DNA of 64,000 nt, taken from Occultella glacieicola. Lineage in GTDB: Bacteria > Actinomycetota > Actinomycetes > Actinomycetales > Beutenbergiaceae. Below are positions 7,958 through 31,724 of the stretch, one piece after another; the first letter of the stretch is position 1, and every line of letters begins with the position of its first letter. The DNA is taken from NCBI RefSeq assembly GCF_004353825.1, contig NZ_SMNA01000001.1, positions 434,001 through 498,000 of the forward strand, written 5' to 3'. A program made the position numbers and the translations under genes. Below the pieces are notes generated by a model. The model did no database searches. It saw nothing but the letters and a program-made list of their open reading frames with translations, and was not told the DNA's origin.

Positions 7958-8508
7958 CCACACTCTCGGCCCGGCCCAACACCGCGCTGCTGGTGATCGA
8001 CATGCAGAACGGGGTGGTGGCCGGGCTCCATCGGCGTGCCGAGGTGGTGGCGAACATCGGCGCCCTCGTGGAGAGCGCCCGCGGCGCGGGTGCGCCGGTC
8101 GTCTGGATCCAGGACTCCGGTGCGGACACGCCGCGGGGGAGCCGGGCCTGGGAGTACATCCCGGAACTGGTCCGCGAGGAGTCGGAGACCCTCGTCCACA
8201 AGACCTACCAGGACTCGTTCGAGGACACCGACCTGGAGGAGGCCCTGGCTGCGGCAGGAGTCGGCCGGGTGGTGGTGACCGGGGCCCACACCGATGCGTG
8301 CGTCCGGTCCACGATCCACGGCGCCCTCGTCCGAGGGTATGACGTGACGCTCGTCGAGGATGCCCACGCCGCCGCGGATCTGAGCTCGTGGGGTGCGCCG
8401 CCGCCGGCGCAGGTGATCGCCCACACCAACCTCTATTGGCGCAGCCAGCGAGCACCGGGTCGGGTCGCCGAGGTCACGGCCACGAAGGACGTGACGTTCG
8501 ACCGCTGA
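7954..8508 (+). CDS. Cysteine hydrolase, isochorismatase family
   Basis: A 184-residue protein with the triad of the isochorismatase-like fold: Asp16 in LLVIDMQ, Lys83 in VHKTYQDSF and Cys116 in GAHTDACVRST. Cysteine members (unlike true isochorismatases) hydrolyse amides such as nicotinamide, N-carbamoylsarcosine or ureidoacrylate; the substrate here is unknown. The start overlaps the stop of the short upstream frame (ATGA), so translation is probably coupled. Length and motifs are normal, so the gene looks functional. Confidence 0.9.
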   Translation: MTTLSARPNTALLVIDMQNGVVAGLHRRAEVVANIGALVESARGAGAPVVWIQDSGADTPRGSRAWEYIPELVREESETLVHKTYQDSFEDTDLEEALAAAGVGRVVVTGAHTDACVRSTIHGALVRGYDVTLVEDAHAAADLSSWGAPPPAQVIAHTNLYWRSQRAPGRVAEVTATKDVTFDR

Positions 8509-8566
8509 CGTCTGCGCCGGACGGGCTCGGTCAGCGGACCTCGGTCGACGGGGCCGGGGGTGGCGG

Positions 8567-9100
8567 TCAGACCCTCGAGGGCCACCTGTGCTGCATCCAC
8601 TCCGCCCACGAGGCGAAGCCGGTCGGCGGTGAATCGATCGGCTCAGTGCCGTTCAGTTCTCCTGGTGTCGGCACGTCGAAGCGGCTTGCCCAGTCCCTCA
8701 GTTCGGCTTCGGATATCGGCCACGTCGAGCCAGGGTCCGAGGCGAGTCGGAGGTCGTGGCGTCGTCGCTGCTCCTCCACGCCGATCGGGGCGTACCACAG
8801 GACCACGGAGCCGCCTGCCTGGTCCCCGGCGTACCGCAGAGCCGATCGTTCGGCACGGCTCCAGAGACCGAAATCGAGTGCGACGTTGACTCCGAGACGC
8901 ACGGCGCGCAGCGCGATCGCCACGAGCCGGCCTTCGATGACGTCGCTGGCCGACGACGGATTCTCGGCGCCGTAGAGCGCCTTCATCCACTCGTCCTTGG
9001 TCAGTCGAATCGCCTCGTGCTCGACCTCGAACCGGCGTGCTGCGGTCGTCTTCCCGCAGCCTGGCAAGCCGACCGTCAGGAACAAGGTGGGCCCGGTCAT
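8567..9100 (-). CDS. Predicted P-loop kinase (AAA_33 / zeta-toxin-like)
   Basis: A 177-residue ATP-binding protein with Walker A GLPGCGKT at residues 11-18. After it come LTKDEWM, the place of the substrate-binding Asp in predicted kinases, and LGVNVALDFGLWSRAERS. This is the small 'predicted kinase' family related to polynucleotide kinase and zeta toxin. The substrate is unknown; a role as toxin is unlikely without an antitoxin gene. It is convergent with the isochorismatase gene and lies 12 bases downstream of the PPOX-class gene on the same strand, so the two may form an operon. Confidence 0.82.
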   Translation of the reverse strand: MTGPTLFLTVGLPGCGKTTAARRFEVEHEAIRLTKDEWMKALYGAENPSSASDVIEGRLVAIALRAVRLGVNVALDFGLWSRAERSALRYAGDQAGGSVVLWYAPIGVEEQRRRHDLRLASDPGSTWPISEAELRDWASRFDVPTPGELNGTEPIDSPPTGFASWAEWMQHRWPSRV

Positions 9101-9112
9101 GATGGGCGATCC

Positions 9113-9589
9113 TCACACGCCGTCGCCCGGCCCCACCAGGCGCGCCGGGAACCCGCCGGTGGCGATCGGACCCCAGGTCTCGATCGTGATCCGGATCAGC
9201 GACTTCGCCTGCCGGCGCATCGCCTCGCGGTACTCGTCCCAGTCCGGGTGCTCGCCGGAGATGCACCGGAAGTACTCCACCAGCGGCTCCACGGAGTCCG
9301 GCGGGTCGATGACCTCGGCTGTGCCGTTGACCTGCACCCAGGCGTCCCCGAACTTCTCGGACAGGACGCACACCGACGCGGCCGGCCGCTTGCGCAGGTT
9401 CACGGCCTTCGCCCGGTCCGGGTACGTCGAGATCACAAGCCGGCCGCCGGTGTCCAGGCCGCAGGTGGCCGGGGAGAGTTGCGGGCTGCCGTCGTCCCGG
9501 GTGGTGAGCAGGATGCCCTGGTGGCGGGTCCGGACGAAGTCCTCGAGCTCGGTGCGTGAGACGGTGGTGTTCGTGGCGATCTGGGGCAC
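9113..9589 (-). CDS. PPOX-class F420-dependent oxidoreductase-like protein
   Basis: A 158-residue split-barrel flavin/F420-binding protein. The pattern HQGILLTTRDDGSPQLSPA, then STYPDRAKAVNLRKRPAASVCV, then AWVQVNGTAEVID is typical of the PPOX-class TIGR03618/F420 group. Cofactor choice (F420, FMN or heme) cannot be settled from sequence alone, though actinobacterial members often use F420. The GTG start is supported by GAGGAG five bases upstream. It is followed after 12 bases by the predicted kinase gene. Confidence 0.88.
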   Translation of the reverse strand: MPQIATNTTVSRTELEDFVRTRHQGILLTTRDDGSPQLSPATCGLDTGGRLVISTYPDRAKAVNLRKRPAASVCVLSEKFGDAWVQVNGTAEVIDPPDSVEPLVEYFRCISGEHPDWDEYREAMRRQAKSLIRITIETWGPIATGGFPARLVGPGDGV

Positions 9590-9635
9590 GGGGACTCCTC
9601 GGGTCAGCTGCGGCGGTCGGGACCAACGTAGGCGA

Positions 9636-10637
9636 TCAGACCAGTGCCGTCGTCGGGGCGACCAGCGTCTCCACCTCGGCGACGGCGTCGGCCAGGTCCG
9701 TCTGCTCGATCGGCCACAGGTCCACGCCCACCTCGAGCGTGGACCCCGATCCCGGCGTGAACACGATGCCCCGCAGCGGGGACACGTCCCGGTAGTCCCG
9801 GCCCCAGCCGAGCACCACGTACCGGGCGTCGATGAACTGGTCGTTCGTGGGATCGGTGTTCAGCCAGCCCCCGCCGGGCAGCCACACCGACGCCCACGCG
9901 TGCGAGGCGTCCACCCCGCGCAGCTTCTCCCGGCCGGGCGGCGGCATCGTCTCCAGGTAGCCGGACACGTACCGGGCGGCCAGACCCATCGAGCGCACGC
10001 AGCCGATCAGCAGGTGCGCGAAGTCCTGGCACACCCCGGCCCGCCCGGCGAGCACCTCCGGCAGCGTGGTGGACACCGACGTCGCGCCCGGGCGATAGGT
10101 GAAGTCGGTGTGGATCCGGGTGGCGAGCTCGGCCACCACCTGCGCCACCGGGCGGCCCGGCTCGAACGACGGCAACGCGTACTCGCGCACCTCCTCGCTC
10201 AGTTCGACCATCGGCGAGGCCAGCCGGGACTCCGCGATCGAGACCGCCGCACCCGGCCCGCCCATCGGGTCCCCGGGGGCCACCGGCCGCAGCGTCCGCA
10301 CCTGCTGGGCGACCTGCTCCCACGGCACCGGGGGCAGCCGGGCCGGATCCGCCCGGCGGCGCCCGGTCGAGACGACCGAGTGGCCCGTGACCCGCAGCCG
10401 CCGGTGCGGCTGCGTGACGTGGAAGTAGGTGGAACGGTTGCCGCCCCAGTCCTTGTGCTCGGCGACCACGTCCGCGCCGGGTTCGACCACCAGCCCGCTC
10501 GCGTGCACCTGCTGCCCGGCGCCGCGGCGCGGCAGCAACAGCGCACGCCCGTAGGAGGCCGTGACCTCCTCCGGGTAGGTGTAGGTGGTCGTGTGGGTGA
10601 GCCGGTAGTGCAGGTCGCCCTGGTGCGCCCTGCTCAC
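9636..10637 (-). CDS. Transglutaminase-like cysteine protease family protein
   Basis: A 333-residue protein with an N-terminal beta domain (LHYRLTHTTTYTYPEEVTAS, the bacterial transglutaminase-like N domain) and a C-terminal transglutaminase core with an intact triad: Cys203 (AGVCQDFAH), His246 (SHAWASVW) and Asp262 (NTDPTND). Such proteins are probably proteases or amidases rather than cross-linkers. The GTG start at 10637 overlaps the TGA of the preceding ATP-grasp/alpha-E gene (GTGA), so the two are translated together. The pairing is a conserved unit in many bacteria, suggested to make or process a peptide. Confidence 0.92.
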   Translation of the reverse strand: MSRAHQGDLHYRLTHTTTYTYPEEVTASYGRALLLPRRGAGQQVHASGLVVEPGADVVAEHKDWGGNRSTYFHVTQPHRRLRVTGHSVVSTGRRRADPARLPPVPWEQVAQQVRTLRPVAPGDPMGGPGAAVSIAESRLASPMVELSEEVREYALPSFEPGRPVAQVVAELATRIHTDFTYRPGATSVSTTLPEVLAGRAGVCQDFAHLLIGCVRSMGLAARYVSGYLETMPPPGREKLRGVDASHAWASVWLPGGGWLNTDPTNDQFIDARYVVLGWGRDYRDVSPLRGIVFTPGSGSTLEVGVDLWPIEQTDLADAVAEVETLVAPTTALV

Positions 10638-27859: not shown

Positions 27860-28381
27860 TCAGGAGCGAACGGCGGCCATGGGGAGTTCAACCGGGGGGC
27901 CGCCGGTGCCGGTCAGGTCGATGTCCCGCAGCCCGCACGCGACCCGGCGCAGCAGGCCGCGCAGCACCTCCCGCTCGTCCGGCGCGAGCACCCCCATGGT
28001 GGCATCCTCGGCCGCCCGCACCCGGCGCTCGAGCTCGGCCAGCGTGGTCCGGCCGGAGGCGGTGGCCACCACCCGGCGGGCCCGCCGGTCGGTGGGGCTC
28101 TGCTCCCGCAGGACCAGGTCCGCCTCGACGAGGTCGTCGATGAGGTAGGTCATCACGGTCCGGTCGATGCCGAGGTGGGCGGCCAGGGCGACCTGGGTCG
28201 GCTGGTCCCCGTGGACCACGACGTCGAGCACCTGGTACCCGCGGGAGCCGTGCGGGACATCCGCGACCACCTCCGCCACGGCCGCCTCGTAGGCCCGCAG
28301 CAGGGTCCCGACGTGCCAGCCGAAGTCACCCTCGCGGCGGGCTCGGCACCGCTCGTGCGTGGTTTCGGGGTTCGTGGCCAT
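27860..28381 (-). CDS. MarR family transcriptional regulator
   Basis: A 173-residue winged-helix regulator (QVLDVVVHGDQPTQVALAAHL; IDRTVMTYLIDDLVEADLVLRE; wing SPTDRRARRVV). ATG at 28381 is preferred over the extension to 28417. It is divergent from two luciferase-like oxidoreductase genes; the 125-base gap has a clear inverted repeat at 28408-28430 that could be its operator. The likely scheme is repression of itself and of the oxidoreductases until an aromatic or lipophilic ligand binds. Confidence 0.9.
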   Translation of the reverse strand: MATNPETTHERCRARREGDFGWHVGTLLRAYEAAVAEVVADVPHGSRGYQVLDVVVHGDQPTQVALAAHLGIDRTVMTYLIDDLVEADLVLREQSPTDRRARRVVATASGRTTLAELERRVRAAEDATMGVLAPDEREVLRGLLRRVACGLRDIDLTGTGGPPVELPMAAVRS

Positions 28382-28407: not shown

Positions 28408-28430
28408 GTTGATCCAATCATCGGATCGAC
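28408..28430. promoter_or_regulatory. Candidate MarR operator
   Basis: GTTGATCC (28408-28415), 7-base spacer, GGATCGAC (28423-28430): arms match at 7 of 8. It lies 27 bases upstream of the marR start and 76 bases upstream of the first LLM gene, so it can act on both. Confidence 0.55.
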
Positions 28431-28506
28431 ATATGATCTGCCAGACAACACATATCGCCGTGATCCCCGAGGGCTCACGGCGACCCGGAACACACGAGGT
28501 GCGCAC

Positions 28507-29439
28507 ATGCCGGACTACGGCCACGACCTGACCTTCGGAACCTTCATCACCCCCACGAACGCCGCGCCGGCGACGGTGGTGGACCTCGCGAAGGCCACCG
28601 AGGCGGCCGGGCTCGACCTGGCCACGTTCCAGGACCATCCCTACCAGGCGGGCTTCCTCGACACCTGGACGCTGCTCAGCTACGTGGCCGCGCAGACCGA
28701 GCGGGTCTCGCTGTCCGCCAACGTGATCAACCTGCCGCTGCGCCCGCCCGCCATGCTCGCCCGCGCCGCCGCCAGCCTCGACCTGCTCTCCGGAGGCCGG
28801 TTCGAGCTGGGCCTCGGCGCCGGCGCGTTCTGGGACGCCATCGGGGCCATGGGTGGCCCCCGCCGCACGCCCGGTGAGTCGATCACTGCTCTGAGCGAGG
28901 GCATCGACATCATCCGGGGCCTCTGGGACACCAGCACCCGGGAGCGCCTCGTCGTCGATGGCGAGTTCTACCGGGTGGACGGCGCCAAGCGCGGCCCGGC
29001 CCCGGCGCACGACATCCAGATCTGGCTCGGCGCCTACAAGCCGCGGATGCTGCGCCTGATCGGGCGCAAGGCCGATGGTTGGCTGCCCTCCCTCGGCTAC
29101 GTGAAGGACCTGAACGACCTGACCACCTCGAACGCGACCATCGACGAGGCCGCGCTCGCCGCCGGACGCACCCCGGGCGACGTGCGCCGGTTGTTGAACA
29201 TCGGCGGCACGTTCTCCGCCCAGCGCGGCGACGCCCTGTTGTCCGGTCCGCCCGAGCAGTGGGCCGAGCAGCTCGCCGACCTCACCCTCGAATACGGCTT
29301 CTCCACCTACATCCTCTCCGGCGACGACGCCCGGTCGATGATGATCCTCGGACAGGAGGTCGCCCCCGCCGTCCGCGAACTCGTACGCGCCGAACGTGGC
29401 GCCGACCGGACGGACCCGACCTCCGCCGTCGGGCGCTGA
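28507..29439 (+). CDS. LLM class flavin-dependent oxidoreductase
   Basis: A 310-residue luciferase-like TIM-barrel monooxygenase/reductase, which uses FMN or F420. Family motifs: FGTFITPTNAAPATVVDLAK, FQDHPYQ near the first strand-loop, LARAAASLDLLSGGRFELGLGAG, and IWLGAYKPRMLRLIGRKADGW. The next gene, starting 2 bases after the stop, begins with a paralogous domain of similar length, so the pair came from a duplication. The divergent MarR gene is its likely regulator. Substrate unknown. Confidence 0.92.
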   Translation: MPDYGHDLTFGTFITPTNAAPATVVDLAKATEAAGLDLATFQDHPYQAGFLDTWTLLSYVAAQTERVSLSANVINLPLRPPAMLARAAASLDLLSGGRFELGLGAGAFWDAIGAMGGPRRTPGESITALSEGIDIIRGLWDTSTRERLVVDGEFYRVDGAKRGPAPAHDIQIWLGAYKPRMLRLIGRKADGWLPSLGYVKDLNDLTTSNATIDEAALAAGRTPGDVRRLLNIGGTFSAQRGDALLSGPPEQWAEQLADLTLEYGFSTYILSGDDARSMMILGQEVAPAVRELVRAERGADRTDPTSAVGR

Positions 29440-29441
29440 CC

Positions 29442-31724
29442 ATGGACTACGGACACCACCTCGAGTTCGGGGCCTTCGTCAACCCCGACAGCGCCGACCC
29501 GGCCGGCGTCGTCGACCTCGCCCGGCGCGCCGAGGAGCTCGGCCTCGACCTCGTCACCGTGCAGGACCACCCCTACCAACCCGCGTTGCTGGAGACCTGG
29601 ACCCTGCTCTCCTGGATCGCCGGCAGCACGGACCGGATCCGGATCGCCCCGAACGTGCTGAACATGGCGATCCGCCCGCCCGCCGTGCTCGCCCGCGCCG
29701 CCGCGAGCCTCGACCTGCTCTCCGGCGGGCGCCTCGAGCTCGGCCTCGGCGCCGGGCACTTCTGGGACGCGATCGCCGCGATGGGGACCCCGCGGCTCAG
29801 TCCTGGCGAGTCCGTGGACGCGCTCACGGAGGCGATCGAGCTGCTCCGCGCCGTCTGGGCCGGTGACGCCTCGAGCCCGCTCGAGGTACCCGGCGCCTTC
29901 CACGCGCTCGACGGCGCCCAGGGCGGCCCCGCCCCCGCCCACACCATCCCGCTGTGGATCGGCGCGCTCAAGCCGCGCATGCAGCGCCTCATCGGCGCCA
30001 AGGCGGACGGCTGGTGGCCCTCGCTCGGGCGCCTCGCACCCGGCGACCTGGCCGCCGGGAACGCCGTGATCGACACCGCCGCGACCGAGGCCGGGCGCGA
30101 CCCCCGCGAGATCCGTCGCCTCCTCAACATCACCGGCTCCTTCGGCCCGACGGCGCAGGGCGAGTTGAGTGGACCGCCGTCGGCCTGGGTGGAGCAACTG
30201 CTCCCGTACGTGCTGGACGACGGCGTGGGCACGTTCGTGTACGCGGCCTCCGGTGGGGCGGACCTCGAGCGGTTCGCGACCGAGGTGGCGCCCGCCCTGC
30301 GCGAGGCCGTCGCCGCCGAGCGGCACGCCCGGTCGACCCCCGTGGGTGCCGTGGTGCCGCTGGCGGTCCGCGCCAAGCGGCGCGAAGGCATCGACTACGA
30401 CACCGTGCCGGCCGCGCTGGCCGCGACCGCCGTCGAGCCCGGCCACGCCGGCTTCGCGGGTGTGCGCAACACCTATCTGCGCGGCGGCTCACCCGGTCTG
30501 GTGCTGCGACCCGGCGACGCCGACGAGGTGGCGCAGGCGCTCGCGTTCGCGCGGTCCCAGCCGGTGCCGCTCGCGGTCCGCAGCGCCGGGCACGGCATCA
30601 GTGGCCGCTCCACGAACGACGGTGGCATCGTCATCGACCTGTCCCGCCTGAACGGGATCGAGGTCCTCGACGTCGACACCCGGCGGGTCCGGATCGAGCC
30701 GGGCGCCCGCTGGGGCGAGGTGGCGCAGGCGTTGCACCCGCACGGCTGGGCGCTCAGCTCGGGTGACTTCGGGGGCGTGGGCGTCGGCGGGCTGGCCACG
30801 GCCGGCGGGATCGGCTGGCTCGGCCGCAAGCACGGGCTCACCATCGACCACCTGCGCGCCGTCGAGATCGTCCTCGCCGACGGCGCTCTGGTGCGGGCCG
30901 ACGCCGAGCACCACCCCGACCTGTTCTGGGCGGTGCGCGGTGCGGGTGCGAACCTCGGGATCGTCACCGCGTTCGAGTTCGAGGTGGACGAGGTCGGCGA
31001 CGTCGGCTTCGCCCAGCTGGTCTTCGACGCCGGTAACGTCGCCACCTTCCTCGAGAACTGGGGCGCCCTGCAGGAGGCGGCGCCGCGGGACCTGACCAGC
31101 TTCCTGATCATCGGGCGCCCGCGCGGGGGGCAGGTGGTCGCCACCGTGATGGCGACGGTCGACTCCGACGACCCGGACACCGTGATCAGCAGGCTCCAGC
31201 CGTTCGCGACGCTCGGCCCGCTGCTGCAGCAGGCCGTGCAGATCCTGCCCTACCCGGCGATCGTGGCCACGCCCGACGGCGGCCAGCACGGCCAGGGCGA
31301 GCCGGCCACCCGGTCCGCGCTCGTGGAACACCTCACGCCCGAGTTCGCCGCGGCCGCGGCCAAGCTCATCCACAGCGGGGTGTCCTACTTCTTCCAGATC
31401 CGCTCCGTGGGCGGCGCCGTCGCCGACGTGCCGCCGGAGGAGACGGCGTACGCGCACCGGTCCGCGAACTTCTCCGTGACCGCGTTCGGCGCCGGCCGCA
31501 CCCGCCTGGACGCGGTCTGGGACACCCAGATCCAGCCGCACGCGAACGGCCTCTACCTGAGCTTCGAGACCGACCCGAGGCCCGAACGGATCGCCGACGC
31601 GTTCCCGCCGGCCACGCTGGCCCGGCTGCGCGAGATCAAGGCGCGAGTGGACCCCGAGAACGTGTTCCGGGACAACTTCAACGTGGCGCCGGCGGAGCCG
31701 GGGATCACGGCCGTGGCCGGCTGA
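29442..31724 (+). CDS. Fusion: LLM flavin oxidoreductase + berberine-bridge-type FAD oxidase
   Basis: A 760-residue fusion. Residues 1 to about 295 are an LLM domain close to the preceding gene (HLEFGAFVNPDS, LARAAASLDLLSGGRLELGLGAG). Residues about 335-760 are a FAD-binding PCMH domain with a BBE C-terminal end: VRSAGHGISGRS, with His384 in the place of the covalent FAD ligand, then GGIGWLGRKHGLTIDHL, where the second covalent Cys of plant enzymes is replaced, so attachment is probably single. The end INPENVF-like motif reads VDPENVFRDNFN. ATG at 29442 follows the previous stop closely. The two flavin domains may act in sequence on one substrate. Confidence 0.9.
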   Translation: MDYGHHLEFGAFVNPDSADPAGVVDLARRAEELGLDLVTVQDHPYQPALLETWTLLSWIAGSTDRIRIAPNVLNMAIRPPAVLARAAASLDLLSGGRLELGLGAGHFWDAIAAMGTPRLSPGESVDALTEAIELLRAVWAGDASSPLEVPGAFHALDGAQGGPAPAHTIPLWIGALKPRMQRLIGAKADGWWPSLGRLAPGDLAAGNAVIDTAATEAGRDPREIRRLLNITGSFGPTAQGELSGPPSAWVEQLLPYVLDDGVGTFVYAASGGADLERFATEVAPALREAVAAERHARSTPVGAVVPLAVRAKRREGIDYDTVPAALAATAVEPGHAGFAGVRNTYLRGGSPGLVLRPGDADEVAQALAFARSQPVPLAVRSAGHGISGRSTNDGGIVIDLSRLNGIEVLDVDTRRVRIEPGARWGEVAQALHPHGWALSSGDFGGVGVGGLATAGGIGWLGRKHGLTIDHLRAVEIVLADGALVRADAEHHPDLFWAVRGAGANLGIVTAFEFEVDEVGDVGFAQLVFDAGNVATFLENWGALQEAAPRDLTSFLIIGRPRGGQVVATVMATVDSDDPDTVISRLQPFATLGPLLQQAVQILPYPAIVATPDGGQHGQGEPATRSALVEHLTPEFAAAAAKLIHSGVSYFFQIRSVGGAVADVPPEETAYAHRSANFSVTAFGAGRTRLDAVWDTQIQPHANGLYLSFETDPRPERIADAFPPATLARLREIKARVDPENVFRDNFNVAPAEPGITAVAG

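What the first reader, a model, noticed from the sequence alone, without database searches (positions are those of the whole stretch)
28408..31724. Duplicated LLM oxidoreductases, the second fused to a berberine-bridge-type oxidase
The second gene joins LLM and PCMH/BBE domains, a rare combination, and the whole cluster is divergent from a MarR gene with a good operator. The combination suggests two-step flavin chemistry on one compound under ligand control.
Basis: partly seen in the sequence, partly recalled or inferred. Interest (0 to 1): 0.55.

Follow-up and report, generated by a model that had tools for sequence, protein, structure and literature searches.

The report
Enzyme domain decaying into docking module
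A soil bacterium carries two copies of one enzyme, the second welded to a different oxidase, and relatives suggest that the welded copy slowly stops being an enzyme and becomes a handle that holds the oxidase against the free working copy.

Summary
A divergent MarR gene (27863-28381, minus) faces an LLM oxidoreductase gene (28507-29439) and, 2 nt on, a 760-aa LLM-BBE fusion (29442-31724). The fusion is not rare: 69 of 396 genomes of the order carry it, and it occurs in other Actinomycetota and Chloroflexota.

The new result is a reduction series. Fusions with no neighbouring LLM gene keep a conserved LLM domain. Where a separate LLM gene lies beside the fusion, as here, the fused LLM has diverged faster than its own BBE domain in 27 of 27 rows, outside the range of 85 lone fusions, mainly in active-site loops. 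In seven "split" loci the BBE keeps only an 82-190-aa relic of the LLM's N-terminal half. The window is an early case.

Best reading: the working LLM pairs with the fused pseudo-LLM, as LuxA does with LuxB, keeping an LLM and a covalent-FAD oxidase together. Dimerisation and substrate are inferred; only 4 independent contrasts exist (p 0.125). The BBE part has the FAD-linking His, no second (Cys) link and a gatekeeper Val. F420 dependence is uncertain: 24 of 69 fusion genomes lack CofD.

The parts
27863..28381 (-). MarR-family regulator, 173 aa from the ATG at 28381
   Evidence: Pfam MarR_2 4e-10; MarR- or HxlR-like neighbours at many related loci
28408..28437 (+). putative promoter TTGATC-N17-TATGAT (28409-28437) overlapping an imperfect inverted repeat (28408-28430), candidate MarR operator
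   Evidence: repeat read by eye, not listed; binding not tested
28507..29439 (+). LLM1: separate LLM oxidoreductase, predicted catalytic partner; keeps 86 of 86 conserved positions
29442..31724 (+). LLM-BBE fusion gene, 760 aa, start 2 nt after the LLM1 stop
29442..30341 (+). fused LLM domain (residues 1-300), mildly decayed: 75 of 86 conserved positions kept
30477..31697 (+). BBE/PCMH-type FAD oxidase domain (residues 346-752), nearest solved structure EncM
30591..30593 (+). codon of His384, predicted FAD attachment (EncM His78)
   Evidence: alignment; His in 113 of 113 fused rows, 11 of 13 other BBE rows (2 gaps) and 4 of 4 outgroup rows
30777..30779 (+). codon of Val446, oxygen-gatekeeper position (EncM Thr139)
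   Evidence: Val in 130 of 130 aligned BBE rows, 4 outgroup rows included

Best explanation
The pair encodes one two-flavin enzyme complex. The separate LLM protein is the catalytic TIM-barrel subunit. The LLM domain of the fusion is its dimer partner, increasingly non-catalytic, and tethers a covalent-FAD BBE-type oxidase to it. This would work like LuxA/LuxB, with an oxidase welded to the passive half. A MarR regulator controls the divergent promoter in response to an unknown small molecule. Shown: gene structure, conservation of the fusion, asymmetric decay of the fused LLM where a partner LLM gene exists, the relic in split loci, and the BBE motif residues. Inferred: physical dimerisation, passing of substrate between the two sites, oxidase activity, and ligand control.
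For: LLM-minus-BBE identity within the same protein: 27 fusion rows with a neighbouring LLM gene lie between -0.22 and +0.006, 85 lone fusions between +0.029 and +0.178 (Mann-Whitney U=0, p 3e-15, relatedness not corrected; at 80% BBE identity the groups shrink to 18 and 47). Positions conserved in the separate LLMs only (107 columns, so the fusions were not used to choose them): lone fusions mean 0.925 (n=87), fusions with partner 0.707 (n=27), separate LLMs 0.980 (n=43). In 12 strongly decayed domains (11 distinct) the conserved positions of the six b-to-a loops scored are kept at 4-25% while helix a3 keeps 81%. The split BBE N-termini match LLM residues 20-101 (HHalign 98.2%, E 5.9e-14; reversed 0.14%, best of 30 column shuffles 0.51%), and one (L095) is predicted as a b1-a1-b2-a2-b3-a3-b4 unit. 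The BBE tree, rooted on 4 outgroup rows, has lone fusions branching first and the split form nested with fusion-then-LLM forms. Within Occultella, mean dN/dS is LLM1 0.181, fused LLM 0.275, BBE 0.134. For LuxF and complete luciferase a paper places the dimer interface on the side of a2-a4 (PMC4432964, passages).
Against: No dimer was modelled or measured. That a2 and a3 form the LLM dimer interface is recalled for LuxAB; in MsuD, another member of the fold family, the four-helix bundle is formed by a1 and a8 and the dimer interface by other parts (PMC8234197, passages), and here a2 is kept little better than other helices in decayed domains (0.57, against 0.46-0.53 for a4, a5, a6 and a8). Only 4 phylogenetically independent contrasts exist on supported branches (4 of 4 agree, sign test p 0.125; 8 on all branches). 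The separate LLMs fall mostly in one clade of the LLM tree, so one gain of the partner with later losses is possible. In the window the fused LLM still keeps the conserved D-H-P-Y motif (residues 42-45) and may be active. Some lone, intact fusions sit inside the two-LLM clades (for example L133, L149).
Confidence: 0.55

Rival explanations
1. Two working isozymes: the fused LLM has not become passive but has changed its substrate or cofactor, and the separate LLM does the old reaction.
For: The fused LLM is kept in frame and under purifying selection in Occultella (dN/dS 0.275), and the window copy keeps H43 and Y45.
Against: In 12 fusion rows (11 distinct) the conserved positions of the b-to-a loops that form the active site of such barrels are mostly lost (4-25% kept), and the split relics match only LLM residues 20-101, too little for a whole LLM enzyme.
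Confidence: 0.2
2. The residual LLM part only helps the BBE domain fold or stay soluble and makes no contact with the separate LLM; the genes are merely co-regulated.
For: No interaction has been shown; the relic is modelled with moderate confidence. That each split locus has an LLM gene is how I chose them, so it is no test.
Against: Decay of the fused LLM tracks the presence of the neighbouring LLM gene (119 of 119 rows, with a threshold chosen after seeing the data and the split rows set by hand), which a folding role alone does not predict.
Confidence: 0.15
3. The LLM part is a strictly F420-dependent enzyme, so the complex is an F420 redox system.
For: The best-scoring LLM families in NCBIfam are F420 families, below cut-off. 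CofD is in 48 of 49 named fusion or split genomes searched, in 45 of 69 fusion genomes against 96 of 327 others in the order (p 6e-8, not corrected for relatedness), and in 33 of 36 genomes with only the LLM. An F420_oxidored-like gene flanks the fusion in 5 loci (one by Pfam; four by similarity to it).
Against: 24 of 69 fusion genomes lack CofD, yet 17 lone fusions from such genomes keep their LLM about as well (0.971 against 0.979 in the 69 others, some of which were not searched for CofD). FO synthase was not found in the window's own genome. Of three neighbouring oxidoreductases scanned, one scores 36.7 against the npdG cut-off 149.8 and two had no match at 1e-8.
Confidence: 0.35

Closest known systems
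Bacterial luciferase LuxA/LuxB
   Same: Same fold family (PF00296); one conserved and one diverged copy side by side; the diverged copy predicted to be a structural partner (LuxAB facts recalled).
   Different: Here the diverged copy carries a C-terminal BBE oxidase and in split loci has shrunk to an N-terminal part; no light chemistry implied.
LuxF non-fluorescent flavoprotein (atrophied PF00296 domain; PMC4432964, passages read)
   Same: A luciferase-type TIM barrel that lost core elements and is stabilised at a dimer interface.
   Different: LuxF lacks a2, b3, a3 and a4; the relics here match LLM residues 20-101 (a1 to b4, with a2 and a3) and lost the rest; they are fused to an oxidase.
EncM (BBE-type flavoprotein)
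   Same: Nearest solved structure to the BBE part (phmmer 5e-57; Foldseek TM 0.85 over the target); shared His for covalent FAD.
   Different: EncM makes a flavin-N5-oxide; it has Thr139 where this family has Val, and EncM T139V showed oxidase activity (PMC7662398, passages read).
6-hydroxy-D-nicotine oxidase and mitomycin radical oxidase (McrA)
   Same: Related BBE-type FAD enzymes.
   Different: Chains of 448-459 residues that match the BBE part only; their substrates are in their names.
FGD1 and Mer (F420-dependent LLM enzymes)
   Same: Among the best solved LLM matches; LLM1 H44 aligns with FGD1 His40 (tag offset of 20 inferred), described as part of the F420 pocket (PMC3859598, PMC11448927, passages read).
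   Different: Distant (about 1e-17 at best); F420 use not established here, and many carriers lack CofD.

Membership tests
LLM (bacterial luciferase-like) family PF00296 | Significant match to the Pfam model above the gathering score | tested here: met
   168.7 and 151.4 bits against cut-off 27.9
BBE-like oxidases (PF01565 + PF08031) | PCMH FAD-binding domain plus BBE C-terminal element | tested here: met
   119 and 26.7 bits, both above cut-off; structural match to EncM
BBE-like oxidases, bicovalent type | His plus Cys for two FAD links | tested here: not met
   His in all 113 fused rows; no Cys in any of 130 rows at the Cys position, which I set by recalled BBE motif: predicted single link
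EncM-type flavin-N5-oxide oxygenase | Thr at the oxygen-activating position (EncM 139) | tested here: not met
   Val in 130 of 130 BBE rows
F420-dependent LLM families (NCBIfam) | Score over a curated cut-off | tested here: not met
   LLM1: best TIGR03619 126.2 bits against 166.9; fusion 113.4
F420-dependent LLM families (NCBIfam) | Carrier genomes make F420 | tested here: inconclusive
   CofD in 45 of 69 and 48 of 49 carrier genomes but absent in 24 of the 69; CofE in 32 of 32, with and without CofD, so uninformative
LuxA/LuxB-like heterodimer | Adjacent conserved and diverged LLM copies | tested here: met
LuxA/LuxB-like heterodimer | Physical heterodimer | not testable with these tools
   single-chain prediction only
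MarR family | Winged-helix MarR domain above cut-off | tested here: met
   MarR_2 40.1 bits against 27

The most novel reading that the evidence does not exclude
A flavoenzyme domain has been converted, possibly in more than one lineage, from an active half of a fusion enzyme into a docking module that recruits a separate copy of itself, so that an LLM oxidoreductase and a covalent-FAD oxidase stay physically coupled. The family shows the steps today, from intact fusion through mild decay (the window) to a half-barrel relic.
Probability: 0.5. Interest if true: 0.7.

Novelty: new variant of a known kind. Interest (0 to 1): 0.55.

Why it matters
It would give an ordered natural series of an enzyme domain becoming a non-catalytic docking part, testable with a handful of genes. 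It also argues that the LLM and BBE reactions need to be held together, which narrows the search for their substrate. Name-based annotation (two LLM enzymes plus an oxidase) would miss this.

Tried and rejected
Rarity of the fusion: rejected. F420 as sure cofactor: not accepted (24 CofD-free carriers). CofE as an F420 marker: useless, present in 32 of 32. Neighbouring genes as a substrate clue: 10 neighbours scanned with Pfam gave nothing consistent; PhyH, AraC, ArsR, cation-efflux and phosphoglucose isomerase genes flank the window genes with no visible link. The conserved-column score is partly circular for lone fusions, because they helped to choose the columns (the same holds); searches are the tests that avoid this. 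The LLM tree places decayed domains on long branches and was not used for direction; the outgroup-rooted BBE tree was. PADLOC gave only weak generic matches. Ten literature searches: 'luciferase-like monooxygenase' with 'berberine bridge', 'F420' with 'LLM class' and 'berberine', 'hemerythrin' with 'luciferase-like' and 'F420', and two on LuxA/LuxB interface terms found no paper; some searches gave papers whose passages I read; one search listed 2 and one search listed 4 that I did not open. So the fusion was not found in print by these searches of that library. Papers seen as passages only: PMC11375781, PMC7662398, PMC8234197, PMC3859598, PMC11448927, PMC4432964.

Rows dropped or set: three loci with a partner LLM (L105, L125, L131) are not among the 27, because their fused LLM did not enter the LLM set; L086 and L092 (frame interrupted) and L091 (cut by the contig end) were not counted as intact fusions. 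The 27 hold near copies (four Occultella rows; L077 and L122 identical in the LLM). L080 was not counted as having a partner, because its second LLM seems to belong to another unit; L027, whose neighbouring LLM frame is short, was counted as having one, except, which left both out. Smaller duplicate loci of the same genomes were left out. CofD counts leave out two matches below the cut-off; only the best candidates per genome were scored (two), and some of the 69 fusions are seen by partial matches (for example G342 from residue 257, G006 from 76).
Full report
WHAT IS THERE. The window lies in a genome whose nearest named relatives found are Occultella species (fusions 93% and 91% identical in O. 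gossypii and O. aeris). Three genes form the unit: MarR (27863-28381, minus), LLM1 (28507-29439) and the LLM-BBE fusion (29442-31724). The fusion's ATG lies 2 nt after the LLM1 stop (sequence), and the domains score above Pfam cut-offs. LLM1 and the fused LLM are 56% identical. The AlphaFold model of the fusion is confident (mean pLDDT 89.5, pTM 0.84).

HOW COMMON. In a sample of 396 genomes of the order, at E up to 1e-60 and with two candidates scored per genome, I count 69 with the fusion (a few by partial matches), 5 with split genes and 36 with only the LLM. Of 79 loci fetched from named genomes, 69 were tagged as one-frame fusions, in Microbacteriaceae, Micromonosporaceae, Nocardiopsis, Streptomyces, Nonomuraea, Amycolatopsis and some Chloroflexota and Thermomicrobiales MAGs. 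The combination is therefore an established family, not a local oddity.

ARRANGEMENTS. Four arrangements occur: fusion alone; LLM then fusion (the window); fusion then LLM; and BBE then LLM in separate frames (split). Neighbouring regulators are MarR or HxlR proteins: of 42 neighbours that I picked as candidates, 21 match MarR_2 and 15 match HxlR.

THE FUSED LLM DECAYS WHEN A SECOND LLM IS PRESENT. I compared, inside each fusion, how similar its LLM and its BBE domains are to those of dereplicated lone fusions. For 85 lone fusions the LLM is the better conserved half (difference +0.029 to +0.178). For 27 rows with a neighbouring LLM it is not (-0.22 to +0.006), with no overlap. The BBE domains of the two groups are about equally conserved (median identity 0.593 with partner, 0.568 alone), so this is not general divergence. 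The 27 rows include near copies; at 80% BBE identity they reduce to 18 and the 85 to 47. With columns chosen only from 43 separate LLMs, lone fusions keep 0.925 and partnered ones 0.707, with overlap at the mild end (lone minimum 0.841, partnered maximum 0.879). Within Occultella mean dN/dS is 0.181 for LLM1, 0.275 for the fused LLM and 0.134 for BBE, with fused above LLM1 in 6 of 6 pairs of four genomes. The window is thus a mild case: 75 of 86 conserved positions kept, against 86 of 86 in LLM1.

WHERE IT DECAYS. In 12 strongly decayed domains (11 distinct), conserved positions of the b-to-a loops, where TIM barrels hold the active site, are kept at 4-25%: the loop after b1 25%, the DHPYQ loop 19%, after b3 19%, after b4 12%, loop 5 4%, loop 6 12%. 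Helix a3 is kept at 81%, a1 at 75%, b6 at 100% and the stretch 141-170 at 81%; helix a2 only at 57%, and a4, a5, a6 and a8 at 46-53% (1-13 positions per segment). LLM1 H44, in the DHPYQ loop, aligns with FGD1 His40, which published work places in the F420 pocket (PMC3859598 and PMC11448927, passages).

THE END STATE. In the seven split loci the BBE protein starts with a further stretch, 82-190 aa with the start codons that I chose. As a profile it matches LLM residues 20-101 (98.2%, E 5.9e-14), while its reverse scores 0.14% and 30 column shuffles at most 0.51%. For L095 the stretch is predicted as b1-a1-b2-a2-b3-a3-b4 at pLDDT about 63-80. On the outgroup-rooted BBE tree, lone fusions branch first and the split form (100*) is nested with two fusion-then-LLM rows (96*). 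So splitting looks secondary. LuxF is a published case of PF00296 atrophy, but it lacks a2, b3, a3 and a4 (PMC4432964, passages), whereas these relics kept a2 to a3.

LIMITS. Related sequences are not independent. The rows agree in 119 of 119 cases, but with a threshold set after seeing the data and split rows set by hand; only 4 independent contrasts stand on supported branches, all agreeing (p 0.125). The separate LLMs fall mostly in one clade of the LLM tree, so a single gain of the partner with later losses is not ruled out. The interface idea is recalled for LuxAB; the LuxF paper puts the luciferase dimer interface on the side of a2-a4, but MsuD uses other parts (PMC8234197, passages).

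THE OXIDASE HALF. It aligns best with EncM. The FAD-linking His is in 113 of 113 fused rows, no row of 130 has a Cys at the second-link position, and the position of EncM Thr139 is Val in 130 of 130 rows. EncM T139V showed oxidase activity (PMC7662398, passage). I therefore predict a singly linked FAD oxidase that passes electrons to oxygen, not an N5-oxide oxygenase.

THE LLM COFACTOR. F420 is favoured by association but not settled. CofD is in 48 of 49 named carrier genomes that could be searched, out of 50 asked and 74 available; the 49 include one split and a few interrupted loci. In the order it is in 45 of 69 fusion genomes, 33 of 36 LLM-only genomes and 60 of 286 with none of these or the split genes. 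But 24 fusion genomes lack it, and the 17 lone fusions among their loci keep the LLM about as well. The window's genome has CofD but no FO synthase found by two searches.

CONTROL REGION. A promoter-like TTGATC-N17-TATGAT with an inverted repeat over the -35 and spacer lies at 28408-28437 and is invariant in the four genomes aligned. It is a plausible MarR site; no binding evidence exists.

VERDICT.

Noticed in passing
   Followed up: partly
L101:5308-6423 (G000 contig C20:369508-370404): The window's genome has a CofD gene over the cut-off but no FO synthase (FbiC/CofH) by two searches; the same holds for several relatives. An MFS-like gene (below family cut-offs) lies just upstream. Possible FO salvage.
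   Followed up: partly
24 genomes: A CofE-like ligase over the cut-off is present in all 24 fusion genomes in which CofD was not found.
   Followed up: no
L034, L040, L041, L042, L025: An F420_oxidored-like gene flanks the fusion in Agromyces (downstream) and Cryobacterium (upstream); L034 by Pfam PF03807, the others by similarity; far below or without a match to npdG in the three scanned.
   Followed up: partly
L066: Record titled Planococcus sp. APC 4015 carries a fusion and flanks that group with Microbacterium; the record may be mislabelled.
   Followed up: no
L080:4466-6736 and 7995-10235: Streptomyces wuyuanensis seems to hold two divergently oriented LLM/BBE units, the first much diverged.
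   Followed up: no
window 28455-28483: 13-nt inverted repeat (92% complementary) in the leader between promoter and LLM1 start.
   Followed up: no
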